DNA of 5,740 nt. It comes from Acholeplasmatales bacterium. Its GTDB lineage: Bacteria; Bacillota_I; Bacilli_A; Acholeplasmatales; Anaeroplasmataceae. The first letter of the stretch is position 1; each line of letters opens with the position of its first letter. Location: NCBI GenBank assembly GCA_024696565.1, contig JAILGR010000070.1, forward strand, positions 1 through 5,740. Reading direction: 5' to 3'. This document shows positions 134-5,740 of the stretch, in pieces. The translations under genes and the position numbers were made by a program. The notes below the pieces were generated by a model. The model did not search any database. It was not told the DNA's origin and saw only the letters and a list, made by a program, of their open reading frames with translations.

Positions 134-2746
134 ATGGCGAAAAAAGATAAAGACTTCGGTAATGATGAATTACAAGCCTATTATGAAAAGGCTTACCAAG
201 CTTTAGACAATGAAACCCAAAACGACACCTACGGATCTTACATTTTAAACAGAGTTAAGGGTGGTCAAAAAACAGTATTCAATAAGACTCAATCTGAAAT
301 TCGTAATTTCGATATGTCATTCTTGGACACTATTGAATCTGTTTATCCTGCCATTACTAAGATTATGAGAGACCCTAAGAAGTCACTACGCTATGAACAA
401 GAAGTAGTAGCTGTAGAAAAGGCTAGAAAGACTAACTCAGATACAGTTAGACATTTATCTAGCCACACTCATTTAATCAAGGAAATTAAGAAAAATGGTG
501 ATGTTATTCCTTCTAAAGTATTAAATACTTATGCTGAAGAAGAATTAGCCATTTATGAGAACCGCTTCATTAAGTCTTTAGTTAGACGTCTAGAAATCTT
601 CTTAGAGAGAAGATATGAAGTAATGAAAGTATCACTAGAATCATTTGAAACTGAAAGATTAAATGTTTCAGATGAATTCTTAATGTCTGGTCAAACTGTA
701 ACTGTATCTTTAGATATAGCTATTAAAAATGACTTAACTACTAATGTTGAAAATACTAAAGAACAATATAATAGATTATTATTTATCCGTGAAATGGTTC
801 AAGCGTTAAAAGGAACTGATTTCATGCGTGCTCTAGCTAAAGCTAGACCTGTTATGCCACCTATTATGAAAACTAATATCATTATGCATAACCCAGACTT
901 TAAATTATGTTATGGTTTATGGTTATATCTAGATAGAGTAGATGGTATCGCAACTAATATTGATATTAAAGAAAAATCATATAAATATTCTGCAAACTTT
1001 GATAAAGATATTAATAATATCATGGCTTTAGCCTTAACTACTTTTATTAAGAACCGTCAAATTGATGGTGTATATTCATCAAGAAAAGTAGGACAAGTAA
1101 AGAGTCCTAAGCCAATTGAGAATCAATCACTAGAGCTTGAGATGAATTTAGAAGCAGATAATAATAAACTAGAAGATTATACAATGAACCAATTATTGTT
1201 AGATCAAACTGTAAAATATTTTGAAGGTTCTATGCAAGGCTTACAAGAAACAGGTGCGCCTTATAATGAATCTGTAAGAGTAGTTTATAGACAAATGCTA
1301 GATATGGTTGATCAATTATATCCAAAAGCATTTGGTGTATCTGATGATGAATTTGATTCTGCTGACTTATATAAACAATTAGAATACGCAAGACGTGAAA
1401 TGATGGTTGCTAAAATTGTTAAGCAACAAAAACAAATGGCTCTAGCTAAAATGGGTAGAGAAGAAAAGCGTATTGAAAAATTAATCTTAAAGATTGAAGA
1501 AAAGATTAAGAAAAAAGAAATCAAAGATAGAGAGCGTCTTGCAAGAGAAGAAGCTAGACTTGAAGCACAGCGTCAAGCTGCTCTTGAACGTGAAAGAAGA
1601 AAAGAAGCTAAGCGTAAAGCTCTTGAAAAGGCTGCTGTTGAAGCTGCTAAGGCTGTTGAAAGAAAGATTCAAGATAGAAAGAAAGCCGAAAAGGCTGCTA
1701 ATATGGGTAGAATTAAGGATATGACTTTAATGCAGCCAATATTAGATAGAAAGAGAATTCACTTAAAAGAATTAAGAGAAAAAGAACGTGGTGCTTTTGA
1801 AAATCCAGATGATAAGATTGAGGCAATTAAGCCAGAAGATATCTCTATGCCAATTAGAAGAAGAGATGATTATGATGACTTATCAGATGAAGAACTTGAA
1901 TCATTAATGGCTGAAAATGACTTACTAGATATTCCTGAAGATATTCCAGAATATAAAGAACCAATTAAGAAGAAAGTCGTTAAGAAGGTAGTTAAACAAG
2001 CTCCTAAGGAAGAAGAAAAACCAAAAGAAAAGAAGAAACTTGAAGATATATCTGAAGATAACTTCGATCAACTATCAGATGAAGACTTAGATGCGTTACT
2101 TGGTATCAATTCAGGTGTTACTGATTTCAATGCGGCAGATGTATCTGGTGATGATGAAGAAGAAGTAAAACCATCTATTTCTAAAAATAGTGGTAAGAAA
2201 AAATCTAAAGATGAATTTGATGATTTCTTAGATTCTATTCCTGAAAAAGAACCAGAGCCTGAAAAAGAAGAGCCTCAAATTTCAACTGAAGAATTAGATT
2301 CTGCCTTAGATGATAATAAAGAGGTAGAAGATAATAAGGATTCAGAAATTAATGATATCGTATCAAATATTCCTGATGAAGTAGATGAACCAGTTATAGA
2401 GGATAATAAAGAAGATACTAAAGATGAATTTGATGATTTCTTAGATTCTATTCCTGAAAAGGATCCTTCAGATATTCCAGAAGAATTACCAGAAGAAATG
2501 GTAAAAGAATTTGAAGAAGAACCAGTTGAAGAAACTAAAGCAGCAGAAGATACTCCTACTGAAGAAGTTAAAACAGAACCTAAAGAAGAATCACCAAAGG
2601 TTGAAGCTAAATCAAAAGATGATGAATTTAGAGATATCATAAATTCTAAGCCAAAGAAAGATGAAGATGAATCTGATGATGATTTTGATAACATGTCAGA
2701 TGAAGAACTTGAGGCTTTAATGGCCCAAAATGATTTGGATTTTTAA
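134..2746 (+). CDS. Large cytosolic protein: DUF2357-like N-terminal part, coiled coil, acidic repeat-bearing tail; function unknown
   Basis: Encodes 870 residues, with the ATG set by a strong ribosome binding site and a TAA stop. Three parts are visible. Residues 1 to about 400 look folded and lack a signal peptide or membrane segment. They include YENRFIKSL (141-149) and an RPVMPPIMKTN...NPDFK stretch (238-257), which recall DUF2357-family proteins; this is a weak recollection, and no PD-(D/E)XK nuclease motif is visible. Residues about 418-525 are a Lys/Glu/Arg/Ala-rich stretch predicted to form a long coiled coil. Residues about 560-870 are acidic and low in complexity, so probably disordered. 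This tail carries repeated motifs: LSDEELESLMAENDL at 583-597, LSDEDLDALLG at 647-657, MSDEELEALMAQNDL at 854-868, and DEFDDFLDSIPEK at 693-705 and 764-776. The stop is 12 nt before the signal peptidase start, so the two are probably translated from one message. A scaffold or adaptor role is possible but unproven. The gene itself is certain; its function is not. Confidence 0.9.
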   Translation: MAKKDKDFGNDELQAYYEKAYQALDNETQNDTYGSYILNRVKGGQKTVFNKTQSEIRNFDMSFLDTIESVYPAITKIMRDPKKSLRYEQEVVAVEKARKTNSDTVRHLSSHTHLIKEIKKNGDVIPSKVLNTYAEEELAIYENRFIKSLVRRLEIFLERRYEVMKVSLESFETERLNVSDEFLMSGQTVTVSLDIAIKNDLTTNVENTKEQYNRLLFIREMVQALKGTDFMRALAKARPVMPPIMKTNIIMHNPDFKLCYGLWLYLDRVDGIATNIDIKEKSYKYSANFDKDINNIMALALTTFIKNRQIDGVYSSRKVGQVKSPKPIENQSLELEMNLEADNNKLEDYTMNQLLLDQTVKYFEGSMQGLQETGAPYNESVRVVYRQMLDMVDQLYPKAFGVSDDEFDSADLYKQLEYARREMMVAKIVKQQKQMALAKMGREEKRIEKLILKIEEKIKKKEIKDRERLAREEARLEAQRQAALERERRKEAKRKALEKAAVEAAKAVERKIQDRKKAEKAANMGRIKDMTLMQPILDRKRIHLKELREKERGAFENPDDKIEAIKPEDISMPIRRRDDYDDLSDEELESLMAENDLLDIPEDIPEYKEPIKKKVVKKVVKQAPKEEEKPKEKKKLEDISEDNFDQLSDEDLDALLGINSGVTDFNAADVSGDDEEEVKPSISKNSGKKKSKDEFDDFLDSIPEKEPEPEKEEPQISTEELDSALDDNKEVEDNKDSEINDIVSNIPDEVDEPVIEDNKEDTKDEFDDFLDSIPEKDPSDIPEELPEEMVKEFEEEPVEETKAAEDTPTEEVKTEPKEESPKVEAKSKDDEFRDIINSKPKKDEDESDDDFDNMSDEELEALMAQNDLDF
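2205..2247 (+). repeat. Direct repeat copy 1 (43 bp, in frame)
   Basis: A 43-bp stretch identical to 2418-2460, starting CTAAAGATGAATTTGATG. It encodes KDEFDDFLDSIPE and the first bases of the next Lys codon within the acidic tail of the 870-residue protein. The copies are 213 bp (71 codons) apart, so both are read in the same frame. A diverged third copy at protein level (KDDEFRDIINSKPKK, residues 828-842) lies further along. Confidence 0.9.
2418..2460 (+). repeat. Direct repeat copy 2 (43 bp, in frame)
   Basis: Exact second copy of 2205-2247, encoding the same acidic peptide at residues 763-776. Identity at synonymous positions as well as at protein level points to recent duplication or gene conversion within the tail. 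Confidence 0.9.
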
Positions 2747-2758
2747 AGGTTTTAGCTT

Positions 2759-3454
2759 ATGAATATATTTGCTAAGGTATTTAAAAGAAAATCAAAAGAT
2801 GAGCCAATTTATAAACAAGTAATAGGATATGTAGTAAGTATGCTATGTATCCTATTATGCTTGTATATAACTATTGAGGTTATAGTTTCAAATAACCAAA
2901 ATAGACCTCCAAGAATCTTTGGACTTAGTGTATCTTATGTACCAACTGAATCTATGGAACCAACAATTAAACAATCTTCATATATCATGTTTTCATATGC
3001 TACTTTTGATAGTGTAGGTGAAGGTGATATTGTAGTTTATCATAATGATGAAGAAAATATCTTTGTTGTCCATAGAATAATTAGTAAAAATGAAGAAACA
3101 GGAGTTATTATTACTAAAGGTGATAATAATTCTATAGAAGATCCTCTAGAAATTACTAAGGAGAAAAATATGGTTTATGGTAAATACTTAACCACCTTAG
3201 GATTTATGGCAATGTTTAGTGGTGGCATCAATCAAAATCTAATATTTATAATATTAATAATTATCTTTGTTATTATGCTTGGTATGCAAATATTTAGTAT
3301 GTTTATTAAAGGCAAAACAGAGAAATTAAAAGAAGATAAAGAGGCTAAAAAAGCTTTATTAAGAGAAGAAATGAAACGTCAAATCTTAGAAGAAGAATTA
3401 GCTAAATTAAAGAATCAAAGTAATGAAAATAAAGAAGATAATCACCAAAATTAA
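2759..3454 (+). CDS. Type I signal peptidase, SipW/S26B (Ser-His) type, with charged C-terminal tail
   Basis: A 231-residue membrane protease that would remove signal peptides from exported proteins at the outer face of the membrane. Hydrophobic residues 21-45 form the first membrane anchor. The catalytic serine is Ser65 in PTESMEPTI. The second catalytic residue is His105 in VVHRII, where ordinary bacterial enzymes have lysine; this Ser/His form is typical of Bacillus SipW and of archaeal and ER signal peptidases. TKGDNNSIEDP (119-129) is the conserved KGD...D box, with Asp122 and Asp128 as likely triad or structural acids. Residues about 161-183 form a second membrane span. Residues 184-231 are a Lys/Glu-rich, probably coiled-coil tail, expected in the cytosol if both spans cross the membrane. 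A weak AAAGG (2745-2749) overlapping the upstream stop precedes the ATG by 9 nt, suggesting translational coupling. Two SipW-type signal peptides are encoded just downstream, so these are likely substrates. The symbol sipW is not assigned because orthology cannot be shown here. Confidence 0.92.
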   Translation: MNIFAKVFKRKSKDEPIYKQVIGYVVSMLCILLCLYITIEVIVSNNQNRPPRIFGLSVSYVPTESMEPTIKQSSYIMFSYATFDSVGEGDIVVYHNDEENIFVVHRIISKNEETGVIITKGDNNSIEDPLEITKEKNMVYGKYLTTLGFMAMFSGGINQNLIFIILIIIFVIMLGMQIFSMFIKGKTEKLKEDKEAKKALLREEMKRQILEEELAKLKNQSNENKEDNHQN

Positions 3455-3610: not shown

Positions 3611-3639
3611 TTGAAAAAAATATTATGGTATGTTAACAT
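3611..3639 (+). promoter_or_regulatory. Candidate promoter for the riboswitch and surface-protein transcript
   Basis: TTGAAA at 3611-3616 is followed after 17 nt by TAACAT at 3634-3639, preceded by TGT, giving an extended -10 (TGn). Predicted initiation near 3646 would start the RNA just upstream of the riboswitch aptamer, a usual layout. The -10 matches consensus at only 4 of 6 positions, so it is preferred over the distal candidate mainly on position. Confidence 0.45.
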
Positions 3640-3656
3640 TTAAATACAATTTAAAT

Positions 3657-3737
3657 ATGATAATATTTAGGCAAAGCTGGAGCAATCTAGTGACGCAAAG
3701 CTATAGGGTCTTATATAGATAGCCAGTTGCATTATAT
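3657..3737 (+). promoter_or_regulatory. Cyclic di-GMP-I (GEMM-I) riboswitch aptamer
   Basis: The core matches the GEMM-I pattern. GGCAAAGC at 3670-3677 is followed by the P2 hairpin, with GCTGGA (3676-3681) pairing with TCTAGT (3686-3691) and closed by a GCAA GNRA tetraloop. Next comes the conserved GACGCAAAGC at 3692-3701. P3 then begins, GCTAT (3700-3704) pairing with ATAGC (3719-3723), with the AGGGTCT segment between. The 3' end GCCAGTTGC (3722-3730) resembles the conserved GCCAGGTTGCC. In this family the tetraloop docks into a receptor in P3, and c-di-GMP binds at the three-helix junction. P1 is the weakest part: ATAAT (3660-3664) can pair with ATTAT (3731-3735), extendable by two pairs with one bulged G, so the outer boundaries are approximate. 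It lies directly upstream of the two exported-protein genes and overlaps an intrinsic terminator. Confidence 0.88.
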
Positions 3738-3752
3738 TGGCTATCTATTTTT
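3715..3752 (+). terminator. Intrinsic terminator, riboswitch expression platform
   Basis: The left arm ATAGATAGCCA (3715-3725) pairs perfectly with TGGCTATCTAT (3738-3748), giving an 11-bp stem with a 12-nt loop and a T-tract at 3748-3752. The left arm includes the 3' strand of aptamer P3 (3719-3723), and the loop and right arm take up the 3' side of P1. Aptamer and terminator therefore cannot form together. Ligand binding should disrupt the terminator, which makes this an ON switch. It may also stop read-through from the upstream block. Confidence 0.85.
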
Positions 3753-3759
3753 AATGATT

Positions 3760-3765
3760 AGGAGG
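3760..3765 (+). promoter_or_regulatory. Ribosome binding site of the first exported-protein gene
   Basis: AGGAGG lies 7 nt before the ATG at 3773 and 8 nt after the terminator T-tract. It is outside the terminator stem, so control here looks transcriptional and not by hiding the ribosome binding site. The same AGGAGGTGT string recurs before the next gene. Confidence 0.85.
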
Positions 3766-3772
3766 TGTTCTA

Positions 3773-4642
3773 ATGAAAAAACTAAATACATTTTTATCAT
3801 TTGCTTCATTAGTGTTTACTTCCTTTTTGCTAGTATTCCTAATTTTTGCATGGTATGTTACAAATAAAGTTGCAACTGTATCTGATGGTACTGGTGCTGT
3901 AGCTGATTTGGATGAATTATTAGATACTGCAGAATATTATAATTTCCAATCTGTAAGTGGAAATGTATATACAGTTAGACAATATGTTAAACATACATTT
4001 GGGGAGCATGAAGATAGAGTTCAAATTAGATATTATGAAAATGATGGAACTGCAATTGCAGAACCAGATACAAGTCTAAATGATGGTTATGATGGTCAAT
4101 TCAAAATGAATGAATTTGACTATTTAAAACAAGGTTTTTCAAAATATTTAATTAAGTTAACATTAAAAGAAGGAAAAACCTTAGGACATTTACAATTTTT
4201 ATCAACTGCTAGTTATTTTATAGGATTTTCCAATGGCTCTGGTAATGGAAGTGTAACAAGTGTTAGTAATTTATCAATGTCATCTGTAATTAAGTTTGGA
4301 CAATTAACTACAACTCCAACATTTGGAGCCAATAATTCAACTGTTACTATCATAGGTGGTCCATCTGATAATCCTTTAGATGCAAATCATTATGAACACT
4401 TTGAATATACAAATAATGGGTATGATTATAATGGTGCGATAACAGCATCAACAAAGACTTTAATTAGTAATGTTCAACCAGCTACAGCAAATGATAGCGT
4501 AGTTATCTATTTACTTGTTGATTATAATGTAGATGCACTTAATGCATTCTATGGATATAATCTACAAACATCAAGCGAATGGACAAATCCAGCTGCTCCA
4601 CAATTTACTAATTTAGATTTTAAGATTTTTATTCTAGGATAG
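3773..4642 (+). CDS. Exported protein with SipW-type signal peptide, beta-rich, family not recognised
   Basis: Encodes 289 residues, start fixed by AGGAGG at 3760-3765 and stop TAG at 4640-4642. Residues 2-3 are Lys-Lys and residues 7-26 are strongly hydrophobic. They are followed by AWYVTNK (26-32), which resembles the end of SipW-processed signal peptides such as that of TasA (small residue, then aromatic residues, then a polar N-terminus). Cleavage near Ala26 is inferred; Ile at -3 is not ideal, so it could remain membrane-anchored. The rest has no second membrane span, no LPXTG motif and no cysteine. It is rich in Thr, Ser, Asn and Tyr with alternating hydrophobic stretches (YLIKLTL at 125-131, VVIYLLVDYN at 243-252, LDFKIFILG at the C-terminus), suggesting beta-sandwich folding. 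A TasA/camelysin-like fold is possible but cannot be shown by eye. It is the first gene after the c-di-GMP riboswitch, so a matrix or surface role under c-di-GMP control is likely. Confidence 0.88.
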   Translation: MKKLNTFLSFASLVFTSFLLVFLIFAWYVTNKVATVSDGTGAVADLDELLDTAEYYNFQSVSGNVYTVRQYVKHTFGEHEDRVQIRYYENDGTAIAEPDTSLNDGYDGQFKMNEFDYLKQGFSKYLIKLTLKEGKTLGHLQFLSTASYFIGFSNGSGNGSVTSVSNLSMSSVIKFGQLTTTPTFGANNSTVTIIGGPSDNPLDANHYEHFEYTNNGYDYNGAITASTKTLISNVQPATANDSVVIYLLVDYNVDALNAFYGYNLQTSSEWTNPAAPQFTNLDFKIFILG

Positions 4643-4655: not shown

Positions 4656-5740
4656 ATGAAGAAGATATGGATGTTTTTAATGACCATTATTTGTTCTATA
4701 GGTATCGCTATATGCGTAGCCCAAGCATGGTTTATCAATGGCTTCGATGTTGATCCTCTAGCAACAGGTTCTTCAACTGAAGCATACTATCATTCTGGTA
4801 CAGGAACTGAGTTAGATCCTTATGTTATTACAACACCTAGACATTTATATAATTTAGCATGGTTACAATACCTTGGTAAATATAATAAAGATAAGAAAAA
4901 TGGAACAAATTTCCCTGCAACTTATTTTAAGATTGGTACATCAGCTGGAATCACTATTGATATGGCTGATTGGCCACTACCTCCTATTGGTACAGCAAAA
5001 TATCCTTTTATTGGTAATTTTAATGGTAATGGTGCAACCATTACTAACCTAACAACTACTAACAAATTTAGCGAATTTAATGGTAAAACTCCTTCGGGTG
5101 TTAATAATTCAAATTTTGAAGCTGATTATTGTGGTACTATTGGCTTCTTTGGAGCTATTGGTGCATATGATGGAAATATTATTTCTGAATCAGACTCTAC
5201 TAATAATAGTTTTACTTATGACACAGCTAACAATAAGGTATATAATTTTTATTTAAATGATAATGAAGTTCATACTTGTAGAAGTACAACTTTAATAGGT
5301 GCAGTAGCCGGTTACGTTAATGCTGAAATTTCAGATGTTGGTGTAATTCAACCTCACCTAAACATCCAAACATCAGCAACTTCTAAATTATCTGGTAAAA
5401 CTTCCAATTTAAGCGACTTTGCGGTTGTTGGTTATGCAGAATCAGCATATACAACACAAAAAACAAAATCATCAACTGTTATCTATAACCCAACTTATGA
5501 TTACTCACACTTTAATTTTAAAGGTATGGGTTCTGAAGCAAATTGGGGTGGATCAATCGACTTTTATAAAACATGGACTAGAATTCAAACTGTTCTTCCA
5601 ATGAGCACTACATATCGAGTTTCTAGTTATAGAAATTCTGAAATTCAATATAATTATACTCATGAAGATGTTTATACTACTGGAAGTACAAGTTCGGTTT
5701 ATAATTTGTCTAGTTATAGTAGAATTGCTAGAGATATGAG
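4656..5740 (+). CDS. Large exported surface protein with GLUG-like repeats (3' truncated by window)
   Basis: Open from the ATG at 4656 to the window end, giving 361 complete codons and two bases; the stop lies beyond. Residues 4-24 are a hydrophobic signal segment ending AQAWFING (22-29). This has a good A-x-A site at Ala22-Gln23-Ala24 and the AWF feature of SipW-type signal peptides. Next comes GTELDPYVITTPRHLYNLAW (50-69), of the kind that precedes GLUG/beta-helix surface regions (G-T-x-x-x-P-Y-x-I ... L-x-x-L). PPIGTAKYPFIGNFNGNG (109-126) followed by ATITNL matches the common PIG....PF.G.F.GNG..I.NL pattern. GTIGFFGAIG (160-169) and LIGAVAGYVNAEISDVGV (213-230) are further GLUG-like segments. 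Cys159 and Cys208 could form a disulfide. It probably acts as an adhesin or matrix protein on the cell surface. Whether it ends in a sortase signal, a membrane anchor or free cannot be seen. It is the second gene of the riboswitch-controlled unit, 13 nt after the first. Confidence 0.85.
   Translation, partial: MKKIWMFLMTIICSIGIAICVAQAWFINGFDVDPLATGSSTEAYYHSGTGTELDPYVITTPRHLYNLAWLQYLGKYNKDKKNGTNFPATYFKIGTSAGITIDMADWPLPPIGTAKYPFIGNFNGNGATITNLTTTNKFSEFNGKTPSGVNNSNFEADYCGTIGFFGAIGAYDGNIISESDSTNNSFTYDTANNKVYNFYLNDNEVHTCRSTTLIGAVAGYVNAEISDVGVIQPHLNIQTSATSKLSGKTSNLSDFAVVGYAESAYTTQKTKSSTVIYNPTYDYSHFNFKGMGSEANWGGSIDFYKTWTRIQTVLPMSTTYRVSSYRNSEIQYNYTHEDVYTTGSTSSVYNLSSYSRIARDM

What the first reader, a model, noticed from the sequence alone, without database searches (positions are those of the whole stretch)
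3657..3752. c-di-GMP-I riboswitch whose aptamer and terminator are mutually exclusive: predicted ON switch
The sequence shows a GEMM-I core (GGCAAAGC, GNRA-capped P2, GACGCAAAGC, P3, GCCAGTTGC). An 11-bp terminator stem uses the 3' strand of P3 as its left arm. Ligand-stabilised aptamer should prevent termination, so high c-di-GMP should turn on the two exported-protein genes. A c-di-GMP switch directly on a SipW-type surface locus would tie the second messenger to matrix secretion without a protein regulator.
Basis: partly seen in the sequence, partly recalled or inferred. Interest (0 to 1): 0.75.

Follow-up and report, generated by a model that had tools for sequence, protein, structure and literature searches.

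The report
c-di-GMP ON switch in Anaeroplasma
This stretch of DNA, likely from a relative of the rumen bacterium Anaeroplasma, holds an RNA element that matches the known sensor for the signal molecule c-di-GMP and overlaps a transcription-stop hairpin, so the signal would likely switch on two genes predicted to make exported proteins; it is a well-understood kind of switch, found here in a large set across related genomes.

Summary
Window 3660-3735 (+) scores 55.2 bits against Rfam c-di-GMP-I (RF01051, cut-off 35), with G20, A47 and C92 at 3670, 3697 and 3730. cmscan printed the variant model c-di-GMP-I-GGC, but under its cut-off (49.1 of 59), and its G47 is absent. A 13-bp hairpin plus TTTT (3715-3752, -17.1 kcal/mol) takes the P3 3' strand as left arm; 0 of 300 shuffles of the downstream DNA matched it. 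This is the ON layout of Geobacter pilM and Bacillus thuringiensis Bc3-5. The genome, Anaeroplasma-like, encodes GGDEF and EAL domains and four such aptamers. 46 of 60 genomes searched, own included, carry them; 79 of 139 leaders have an overlapping terminator at -10 kcal/mol or below, against 29 of 1112 shuffles. 117 of 137 first genes have a hydrophobic N-terminus; GGDEF-gene leaders mostly lack the ON layout (11 of 12). The SipW part is half right: the archaeal/SipW-type peptidase gene lies upstream of the switch, and no TasA match was found. Binding and read-through are untested. A new member of a known kind; the pocket diversity in relatives is the more surprising part.

The parts
3611..3639 (+). 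possible promoter (TTGAAA, 17 nt, TAACAT with TG before it); the start site would lie near 3646
   Evidence: consensus scan; the number of such sites in the window is no more than chance, so this is a guess
3660..3735 (+). c-di-GMP-I (GEMM-I) riboswitch aptamer: P1 3660-3664/3731-3735, P2 3676-3681/3686-3691 with GCAA loop, P3 3699-3710/3718-3728; G20=3670, G21-C46=3671-3696, A47=3697, C92=3730
   Evidence: RF01051 55.2 bits; RF03167 49.1 bits; session model R1 81.6 bits, the window being one of its 41 members; positions from the RF03167 alignment, RF01051 alignments of four relatives; the transfer of Vc2 numbers to the model is mine
3715..3752 (+). intrinsic terminator: 13-bp stem (3715-3727/3736-3748), 8-nt loop, TTTT; left arm is the P3 3' strand
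3760..3767 (+). likely ribosome-binding site AGGAGGTG of the first regulated gene
   Evidence: sequence; position
3773..4642 (+). 289-aa protein, N-terminal hydrophobic helix then AWY..N, beta-rich remainder; likely exported; no Pfam family
4656..5740 (+). second likely exported protein (361+ aa, hydrophobic N-terminus then AWF), cut by the contig end; starts 13 nt after the first ORF's stop codon
2759..3454 (+). archaeal/SipW-type signal peptidase I (S..M and HR motifs read by eye), upstream of the switch
   Evidence: TIGR02228 76.6 bits, cut-off 51.85; NF046067 SipW 64.1 bits, cut-off 190, not reached
134..2746 (+). DUF2357-domain protein next to the signal peptidase gene
   Evidence: PF09823 44.1 bits, cut-off 23.3; same neighbours in A. 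bactoclasticum L090

Best explanation
Window 3660-3752 holds a c-di-GMP-I (GEMM-I) aptamer that passes Rfam's cut-off and shares the 3' strand of its P3 helix with the left arm of a 13-bp terminator-like hairpin, so c-di-GMP is predicted to hold the aptamer, prevent the terminator and thereby likely switch on two downstream genes predicted to encode exported proteins. Shown: the covariance match, the letters at the pocket positions (G20, A47, C92), the overlap, GGDEF and EAL domains in the same genome, and the same layout in many relatives. Inferred: that c-di-GMP binds, that transcription starts just upstream, that termination falls when ligand binds, and that the products leave the cell through the archaeal/SipW-type signal peptidase encoded just upstream.
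For: RF01051 55.2 bits, cut-off 35. Pocket letters as in the RF01051 consensus; G20, A47 and C92 are named as key residues in PMC9049102 (passages). Overlapping terminator -17.1 kcal/mol, 0 of 300 shuffles. Of related leaders with at least 100 nt downstream, 79 of 139 have an overlapping terminator at -10 kcal/mol or below, against 29 of 1112 shuffles. Helices covary in 41 aptamers: 132 cells changed on both sides against a shuffled mean of 42.3; 12 of 21 pairs against 10.4, reached by 1 of 500 shuffles. Own genome: 5 GGDEF and 5 EAL matches over the cut-offs. The number of GGDEF matches is higher in the 46 genomes with the aptamer (upper median 17) than in the 14 without (5), p = 3e-5, not corrected for kinship or completeness. 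G035 (no GGDEF match) and G029 (one weak one) have no aptamer and no EAL match. The same layout is described as ON for pilM (PMC9262584, introduction) and reported as ON with reporters for Bc3-5 (PMC4759541, passages).
Against: The aptamer fold is not the lowest-energy fold of 3660-3735 without ligand: -7.3 for the nested aptamer pairs against -15.8 for another fold, which also leads at transcript ends 3731-3740 (tertiary contacts and ligand are not in the energy model). P1 is five A-U pairs, and across the 41 aptamers P1 pairs in only 64.6% of cells. The promoter guess is no better than chance. 12 of the 14 genomes without an aptamer do have GGDEF domains. cmscan printed the GGC variant model, not RF01051. 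No binding, transcription or expression data.
Confidence: 0.85

Rival explanations
1. It is an ON switch of the same build but its ligand is another cyclic dinucleotide, such as 3',3'-cGAMP, or it belongs to the variant class c-di-GMP-I-GGC with a different ligand.
For: cmscan's printed clan model is RF03167 c-di-GMP-I-GGC. 22 of 142 related aptamers carry A20, the cGAMP-type letter, in 15 of 46 genomes.
Against: The window copy has G20, A47 and C92; RF03167 is under its cut-off; the G of its consensus at position 47 is A here. The four aptamers found in the own genome, 85% complete, are 3 G-A-C and 1 G-A-U. None of 69 GGDEF domains on the loci held shows the Ser of cGAMP-making Hypr enzymes (one has a gap there; Ser rule from PMC6456294, passages), though these come mainly from three genomes.
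Confidence: 0.07
2. The aptamer is real but works as an OFF switch or does not control termination; the hairpin is only a transcript end for the peptidase gene upstream.
For: The hairpin starts 261 nt after the peptidase stop codon and could end that transcript. Leaders before GGDEF genes in relatives mostly lack the overlap and look OFF-like.
Against: In the window the hairpin cannot form together with P3. The overlap is better than chance in the window and in 79 of 139 leaders.
Confidence: 0.06
3. A decayed, no longer functional copy.
For: A-U-only P1 and a lower score than many relatives (55.2 against up to 71.1 bits).
Against: The pocket letters, the terminator and a ribosome-binding site are in place. 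The gene cluster of the first ORF has 20 aptamers, 14 of them with an overlapping hairpin at -8 kcal/mol or below.
Confidence: 0.03

Closest known systems
Bc3-5 triple-tandem c-di-GMP-I riboswitch of Bacillus thuringiensis (PMC4759541; passages seen)
   Same: Class I aptamer; terminator uses part of P3, the C92-equivalent and the P1 3' strand; c-di-GMP turns transcription on; tandem copies also occur in relatives of the window.
   Different: There the switch precedes the cspABCED operon and was tested in reporters; the window copy is single, in an Anaeroplasma-like genome, and untested.
pilM riboswitch of Geobacter metallireducens (PMC9262584; abstract, introduction and passages seen)
   Same: Aptamer and terminator mutually exclusive; ON.
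   Different: pilM senses cGAMP; the window has G20 rather than the cGAMP-type A.
Cd1 c-di-GMP-I riboswitch of Clostridioides difficile (PMC9262584, as above)
   Same: Same aptamer family.
   Different: Cd1 is OFF; its aptamer and terminator can coexist, which is not possible in the window. Leaders of GGDEF genes in relatives resemble Cd1 more.
Rfam RF03167 c-di-GMP-I-GGC
   Same: Clan model printed by cmscan; same fold.
   Different: Under its cut-off, and A instead of its consensus G at position 47.
SipW-TasA export locus of Bacillus subtilis (recalled)
   Same: An archaeal/SipW-type signal peptidase gene beside genes for proteins with a hydrophobic N-terminus followed by an A-aromatic motif.
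   Different: SipW equivalog cut-off not reached; no TasA-family match; the peptidase gene is upstream of the switch in the window.

Membership tests
c-di-GMP-I riboswitch (RF01051) | covariance score at or above the curated cut-off | tested here: met
   55.2 bits, cut-off 35
c-di-GMP-I riboswitch (RF01051) | pocket letters G20, A47, C92 and pair G21-C46 | tested here: met
   3670 G, 3697 A, 3730 C, 3671-3696 G-C
c-di-GMP-I riboswitch (RF01051) | P2 capped by a GNRA tetraloop | tested here: met
   GCAA at 3682-3685; docking into its receptor was not tested
c-di-GMP-I riboswitch (RF01051) | binds c-di-GMP | not testable with these tools
   needs in-line probing or calorimetry
c-di-GMP-I-GGC (RF03167) | covariance score at or above the curated cut-off | tested here: not met
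   49.1 bits, cut-off 59
c-di-GMP-I-GGC (RF03167) | G at the position equivalent to A47 (read from the model consensus; that the name GGC means this is my inference) | tested here: not met
   A at 3697
cGAMP (GEMM-Ib) riboswitch | A at position 20 | tested here: not met
   G at 3670
transcriptional ON switch of the pilM/Bc3-5 type | aptamer and terminator share a strand | tested here: met
   8 paired bases shared, C92 and the P1 3' strand in the terminator loop; 0 of 300 shuffles
transcriptional ON switch of the pilM/Bc3-5 type | more read-through with ligand | not testable with these tools
   needs single-round transcription
SipW signal peptidase (NF046067) | equivalog cut-off | tested here: not met
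   64.1 bits, cut-off 190; the broader TIGR02228 is met with 76.6 bits, cut-off 51.85
TasA/CalY secreted fibre proteins (recalled Pfam family Peptidase_M73) | Pfam match of the downstream ORFs | tested here: not met
   no Pfam family at E up to 1 for either ORF; no TasA family among those matched by the 35 aligned members of the first ORF

The most novel reading that the evidence does not exclude
Anaeroplasma and its kin run an expanded cyclic-dinucleotide riboswitch network that controls the cell surface without protein regulators: G20 aptamers switch exported surface proteins ON while diguanylate-cyclase genes are switched OFF by Cd1-like leaders (negative feedback), and pockets with A20 or U92 in the same genomes have diverged towards other ligands or affinities. 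The window copy would be one surface-protein arm of that network.
Probability: 0.35. Interest if true: 0.75.

Novelty: new member of a known kind. Interest (0 to 1): 0.5.

Why it matters
Wall-less bacteria (Mollicutes) are usually discussed with c-di-AMP (recalled), although a 2008 note counted 14 proteins with GGDEF and/or EAL domains in Acholeplasma laidlawii (PMC2408644, passage). A c-di-GMP ON switch in front of likely surface-protein genes, repeated in 46 of 60 genomes searched (own included) and in the cultured A. bactoclasticum, would give those enzymes a direct, testable output. Three pocket types in one lineage make a natural series for asking how a riboswitch pocket changes ligand. 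As to print: in the open-licence papers held, 0 hold 'Acholeplasma laidlawii', 'riboswitch' and 'c-di-GMP' together; 2 hold 'Anaeroplasma' and 'c-di-GMP', of which I saw passages of one, without a link, and did not open the other. One search listed 20 of 1,434. Subscription papers were not searched, and the 2017 variant-riboswitch paper that I recalled is not held.

Tried and rejected
Filing it as the GGC variant: rejected on cut-off and on the letter at 47. Filing it as a cGAMP switch: rejected on G20. Looking for Hypr (Ser) GGDEF enzymes to explain the A20 relatives: no Ser in 69 domains, two with Cys at that place, one with a gap (domains from the GGDEF loci of G000, G003 and G019 plus those that happened to lie on other loci, so most A20-bearing genomes were not surveyed). 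TasA-like fold of the first exported protein: AlphaFold model pLDDT 82.3, but no PDB match at E 0.001 or below and nothing credible by profile. Enrichment of an A-aromatic motif after the N-terminal helix among all targets: not found, 37 of 137 against 34 of 140 other ORFs, p = 0.68. An antiterminator made of the aptamer's 5' strands in GGDEF leaders: suggestive only; matched duplexes were not clearly better than mismatched ones (median -11.5 against -8.2 kcal/mol, p = 0.064, 8 of 12 leaders). My automatic terminator rule misses some cases, clear by eye, whose U-tract starts late (L001, L021), so the ON counts are probably low.

Full report
What is there. The window is contig C67 of a fragmented genome (1,277,435 bases, 259 contigs, 84.8% complete). 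By protein comparison it is closest to records titled Anaeroplasma: the DUF2357 protein is 73% identical to an uncultured Anaeroplasma MAG (L089) and 74% to A. bactoclasticum ATCC 27112 (L090). That the group is wall-less is recalled. On the + strand lie the end of an ATPase gene (bases 1-99, assigned by eye from its likeness to the C-terminus of the L090 ORF 4738-5964), a DUF2357 protein (134-2746), an archaeal/SipW-type signal peptidase (2759-3454), the riboswitch (3660-3752), and two ORFs with hydrophobic N-termini (3773-4642, and 4656 to the contig end).

Aptamer. RF01051 (c-di-GMP-I) scores 55.2 bits with a cut-off of 35. RF03167 (c-di-GMP-I-GGC) scores 49.1 with a cut-off of 59; cmscan prints one model per clan and printed that one. 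The pocket reads G20 (3670), A47 (3697), C92 (3730), with G21-C46 intact. PMC9049102 names these residues as key (passages); the transfer of the Vc2 numbers to the Rfam models is mine. By these letters and scores the window copy is a canonical c-di-GMP-I aptamer, not the GGC variant. An alignment of 41 aptamers (window plus 40) supports the fold: 92.5% of cells paired (shuffled 78.6), 132 cells with changes on both sides (shuffled 42.3), 12 of 21 pairs with such changes (shuffled 10.4), and far more than slid versions. P1 is the weak part, 64.6% paired. The 41 were taken from RF03167 and RF01051 hits, so this is no independent proof for each.

Expression platform. A 13-bp stem, 3715-3727 with 3736-3748, with an 8-nt loop and TTTT, has -17.1 kcal/mol. 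Eight bases paired in P3 are paired in it, and C92 plus the P1 3' strand lie in its loop, so aptamer and terminator cannot coexist. Folding of growing transcripts moves to the terminator at an end near 3743. Without ligand the nested aptamer pairs (-7.3) are not the best fold of 3660-3735 (-15.8), which is against a simple picture, though the energy model lacks tertiary contacts and ligand. Shuffling the 75 nt downstream 300 times never gave as strong an overlapping hairpin. This is the logic described for pilM, 'mutually exclusive', ON (PMC9262584), and for Bc3-5 (PMC4759541, passages).

Relatives. Of 60 genomes searched, own included, 46 have RF01051 matches over the cut-off and 58 have GGDEF matches over the cut-off. 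GGDEF matches are more numerous in genomes with the aptamer (upper median 17 in 46 genomes, 5 in 14), without correction for kinship or completeness. 12 of the 14 genomes without an aptamer do have GGDEF domains; the remaining two are G035 (none) and G029 (one match at E 5e-5, taken to be under the cut-off because the tally lacks one more genome). A session model (R1) found 144 matches in 136 sources, 142 distinct, two of them cut at a locus end and duplicates of L125 and L109. It leaves out at least one RF01051 hit that touches its tandem neighbour (G020:C52:2265-2340). Of 139 with at least 100 nt downstream, 79 have an overlapping terminator at -10 kcal/mol or below, against 29 of 1112 shuffles. 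A first ORF was called automatically for 137 of 142, some doubtfully; 117 have an N-terminal hydrophobic segment, against 73 of 140 other ORFs of 180 aa or more on the loci. 12 are GGDEF proteins; of these, 1 has an overlapping hairpin at -8 or below, against 85 of the other 127 leaders (p = 1e-4, not corrected for kinship). Several GGDEF leaders have a separate terminator whose left arm can pair with the aptamer's 5' strands, as in an OFF switch, but that test was not significant (p = 0.064, 8 leaders).

Targets. The first regulated protein (289 aa) has 38 relatives in the protein database; all 34 that I aligned with it (of 38) keep A26, W27, Y28 and N31 after the hydrophobic helix. The model has mean pLDDT 82.3, but no solved fold matches at E 0.001 or below. 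Among the 142 aptamers, 20 precede genes of the window's cluster, some of which share only the N-terminal stretch. In A. bactoclasticum (L090) a c-di-GMP-I aptamer with an overlapping hairpin (-15.8) precedes a gene cluster that begins with a weak signal-peptidase match (TIGR02228 30.1 bits, under the cut-off) and continues to the DUF2357 protein and a peptidase that passes TIGR02228 (80 bits); in L089 the aptamer precedes a close relative of the first of these genes, with the DUF2357 gene further down. A possible second promoter in the 171-nt gap, seen by eye, leaves control uncertain. In the window the peptidase gene precedes the switch and is not its target.

Pockets. 82 of 142 read G-A-C, 33 G-A-U, 22 A-A-C, and 5 are odd or cut. 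A20 occurs in 15 of 46 genomes, 14 of which also have G20 aptamers. U92 is enriched before one family of about 240-aa anchored proteins, 24 of 45 against 9 of 92 (not corrected for kinship). RF01051's consensus has C at 92. PMC9262584 says that the position equivalent to G20 is a selectivity factor rather than a hard filter, and that cGAMP riboswitches can bind c-di-GMP, so A20 alone does not prove another ligand. None of the 69 GGDEF domains read has the Hypr serine.

Verdict. A canonical c-di-GMP-I aptamer with a mutually exclusive terminator: predicted ON. The kind is known; the member, its host lineage and the breadth of the set are what is added here. G019 is taken as A. bactoclasticum because its contig C20 has the length of NZ_QXEV01000020.1 (31,153), and G054 as A. 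laidlawii because its single contig has the length given for CP000896 (1,496,992; PMC2408644).

Noticed in passing
L033, L071 (two), L097, L098, L102, L103, L104 (two), L117, L118, L119, L126, L130:736, L143, L147, L150, L153, L155, L156, L157, L158: 22 of 142 related aptamers carry A at position 20 (cGAMP-type letter), in 15 of 46 genomes, 14 of which also have G20 aptamers; no Hypr-serine GGDEF was found among 69 domains.
   Followed up: partly
L017, L024, L054 and others; L003:1224-1299 in the own genome: 33 of 142 aptamers have U at position 92, enriched before one family of membrane-anchored proteins (24 of 45 against 9 of 92).
   Followed up: partly
L176 (G019) and L193 (G003): Two otherwise intact GGDEF domains have Cys where canonical enzymes have Asp and Hypr enzymes Ser; both genomes also have A20 aptamers.
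   Followed up: no
L035, L038, L057, L074, L116, L127, L129, L137, L139, L143, L146: Leaders of diguanylate-cyclase genes (11 of 12) lack the overlapping ON terminator and several look OFF-like, suggesting negative feedback; the antiterminator test was not significant.
   Followed up: partly
L016:1190-1264 (-): The pocket pair G21-C46 is swapped to C-G by changes on both sides.
   Followed up: no
L054, L071, L130, L104, L069, L080, L076, L107: Tandem aptamers, two to four in a row; in L071 two A20 copies are followed by one U92 copy.
   Followed up: no
L160 (G000:C115): In the own genome an EAL-domain match (160-867) lies on the same contig and strand just upstream of the U92 aptamer at 1224-1299.
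   Followed up: no
window 134-2746: DUF2357 protein with a long acidic, repeat-like C-terminal half (by eye), next to an ATPase end and a signal peptidase; similar neighbours in L090.
   Followed up: partly
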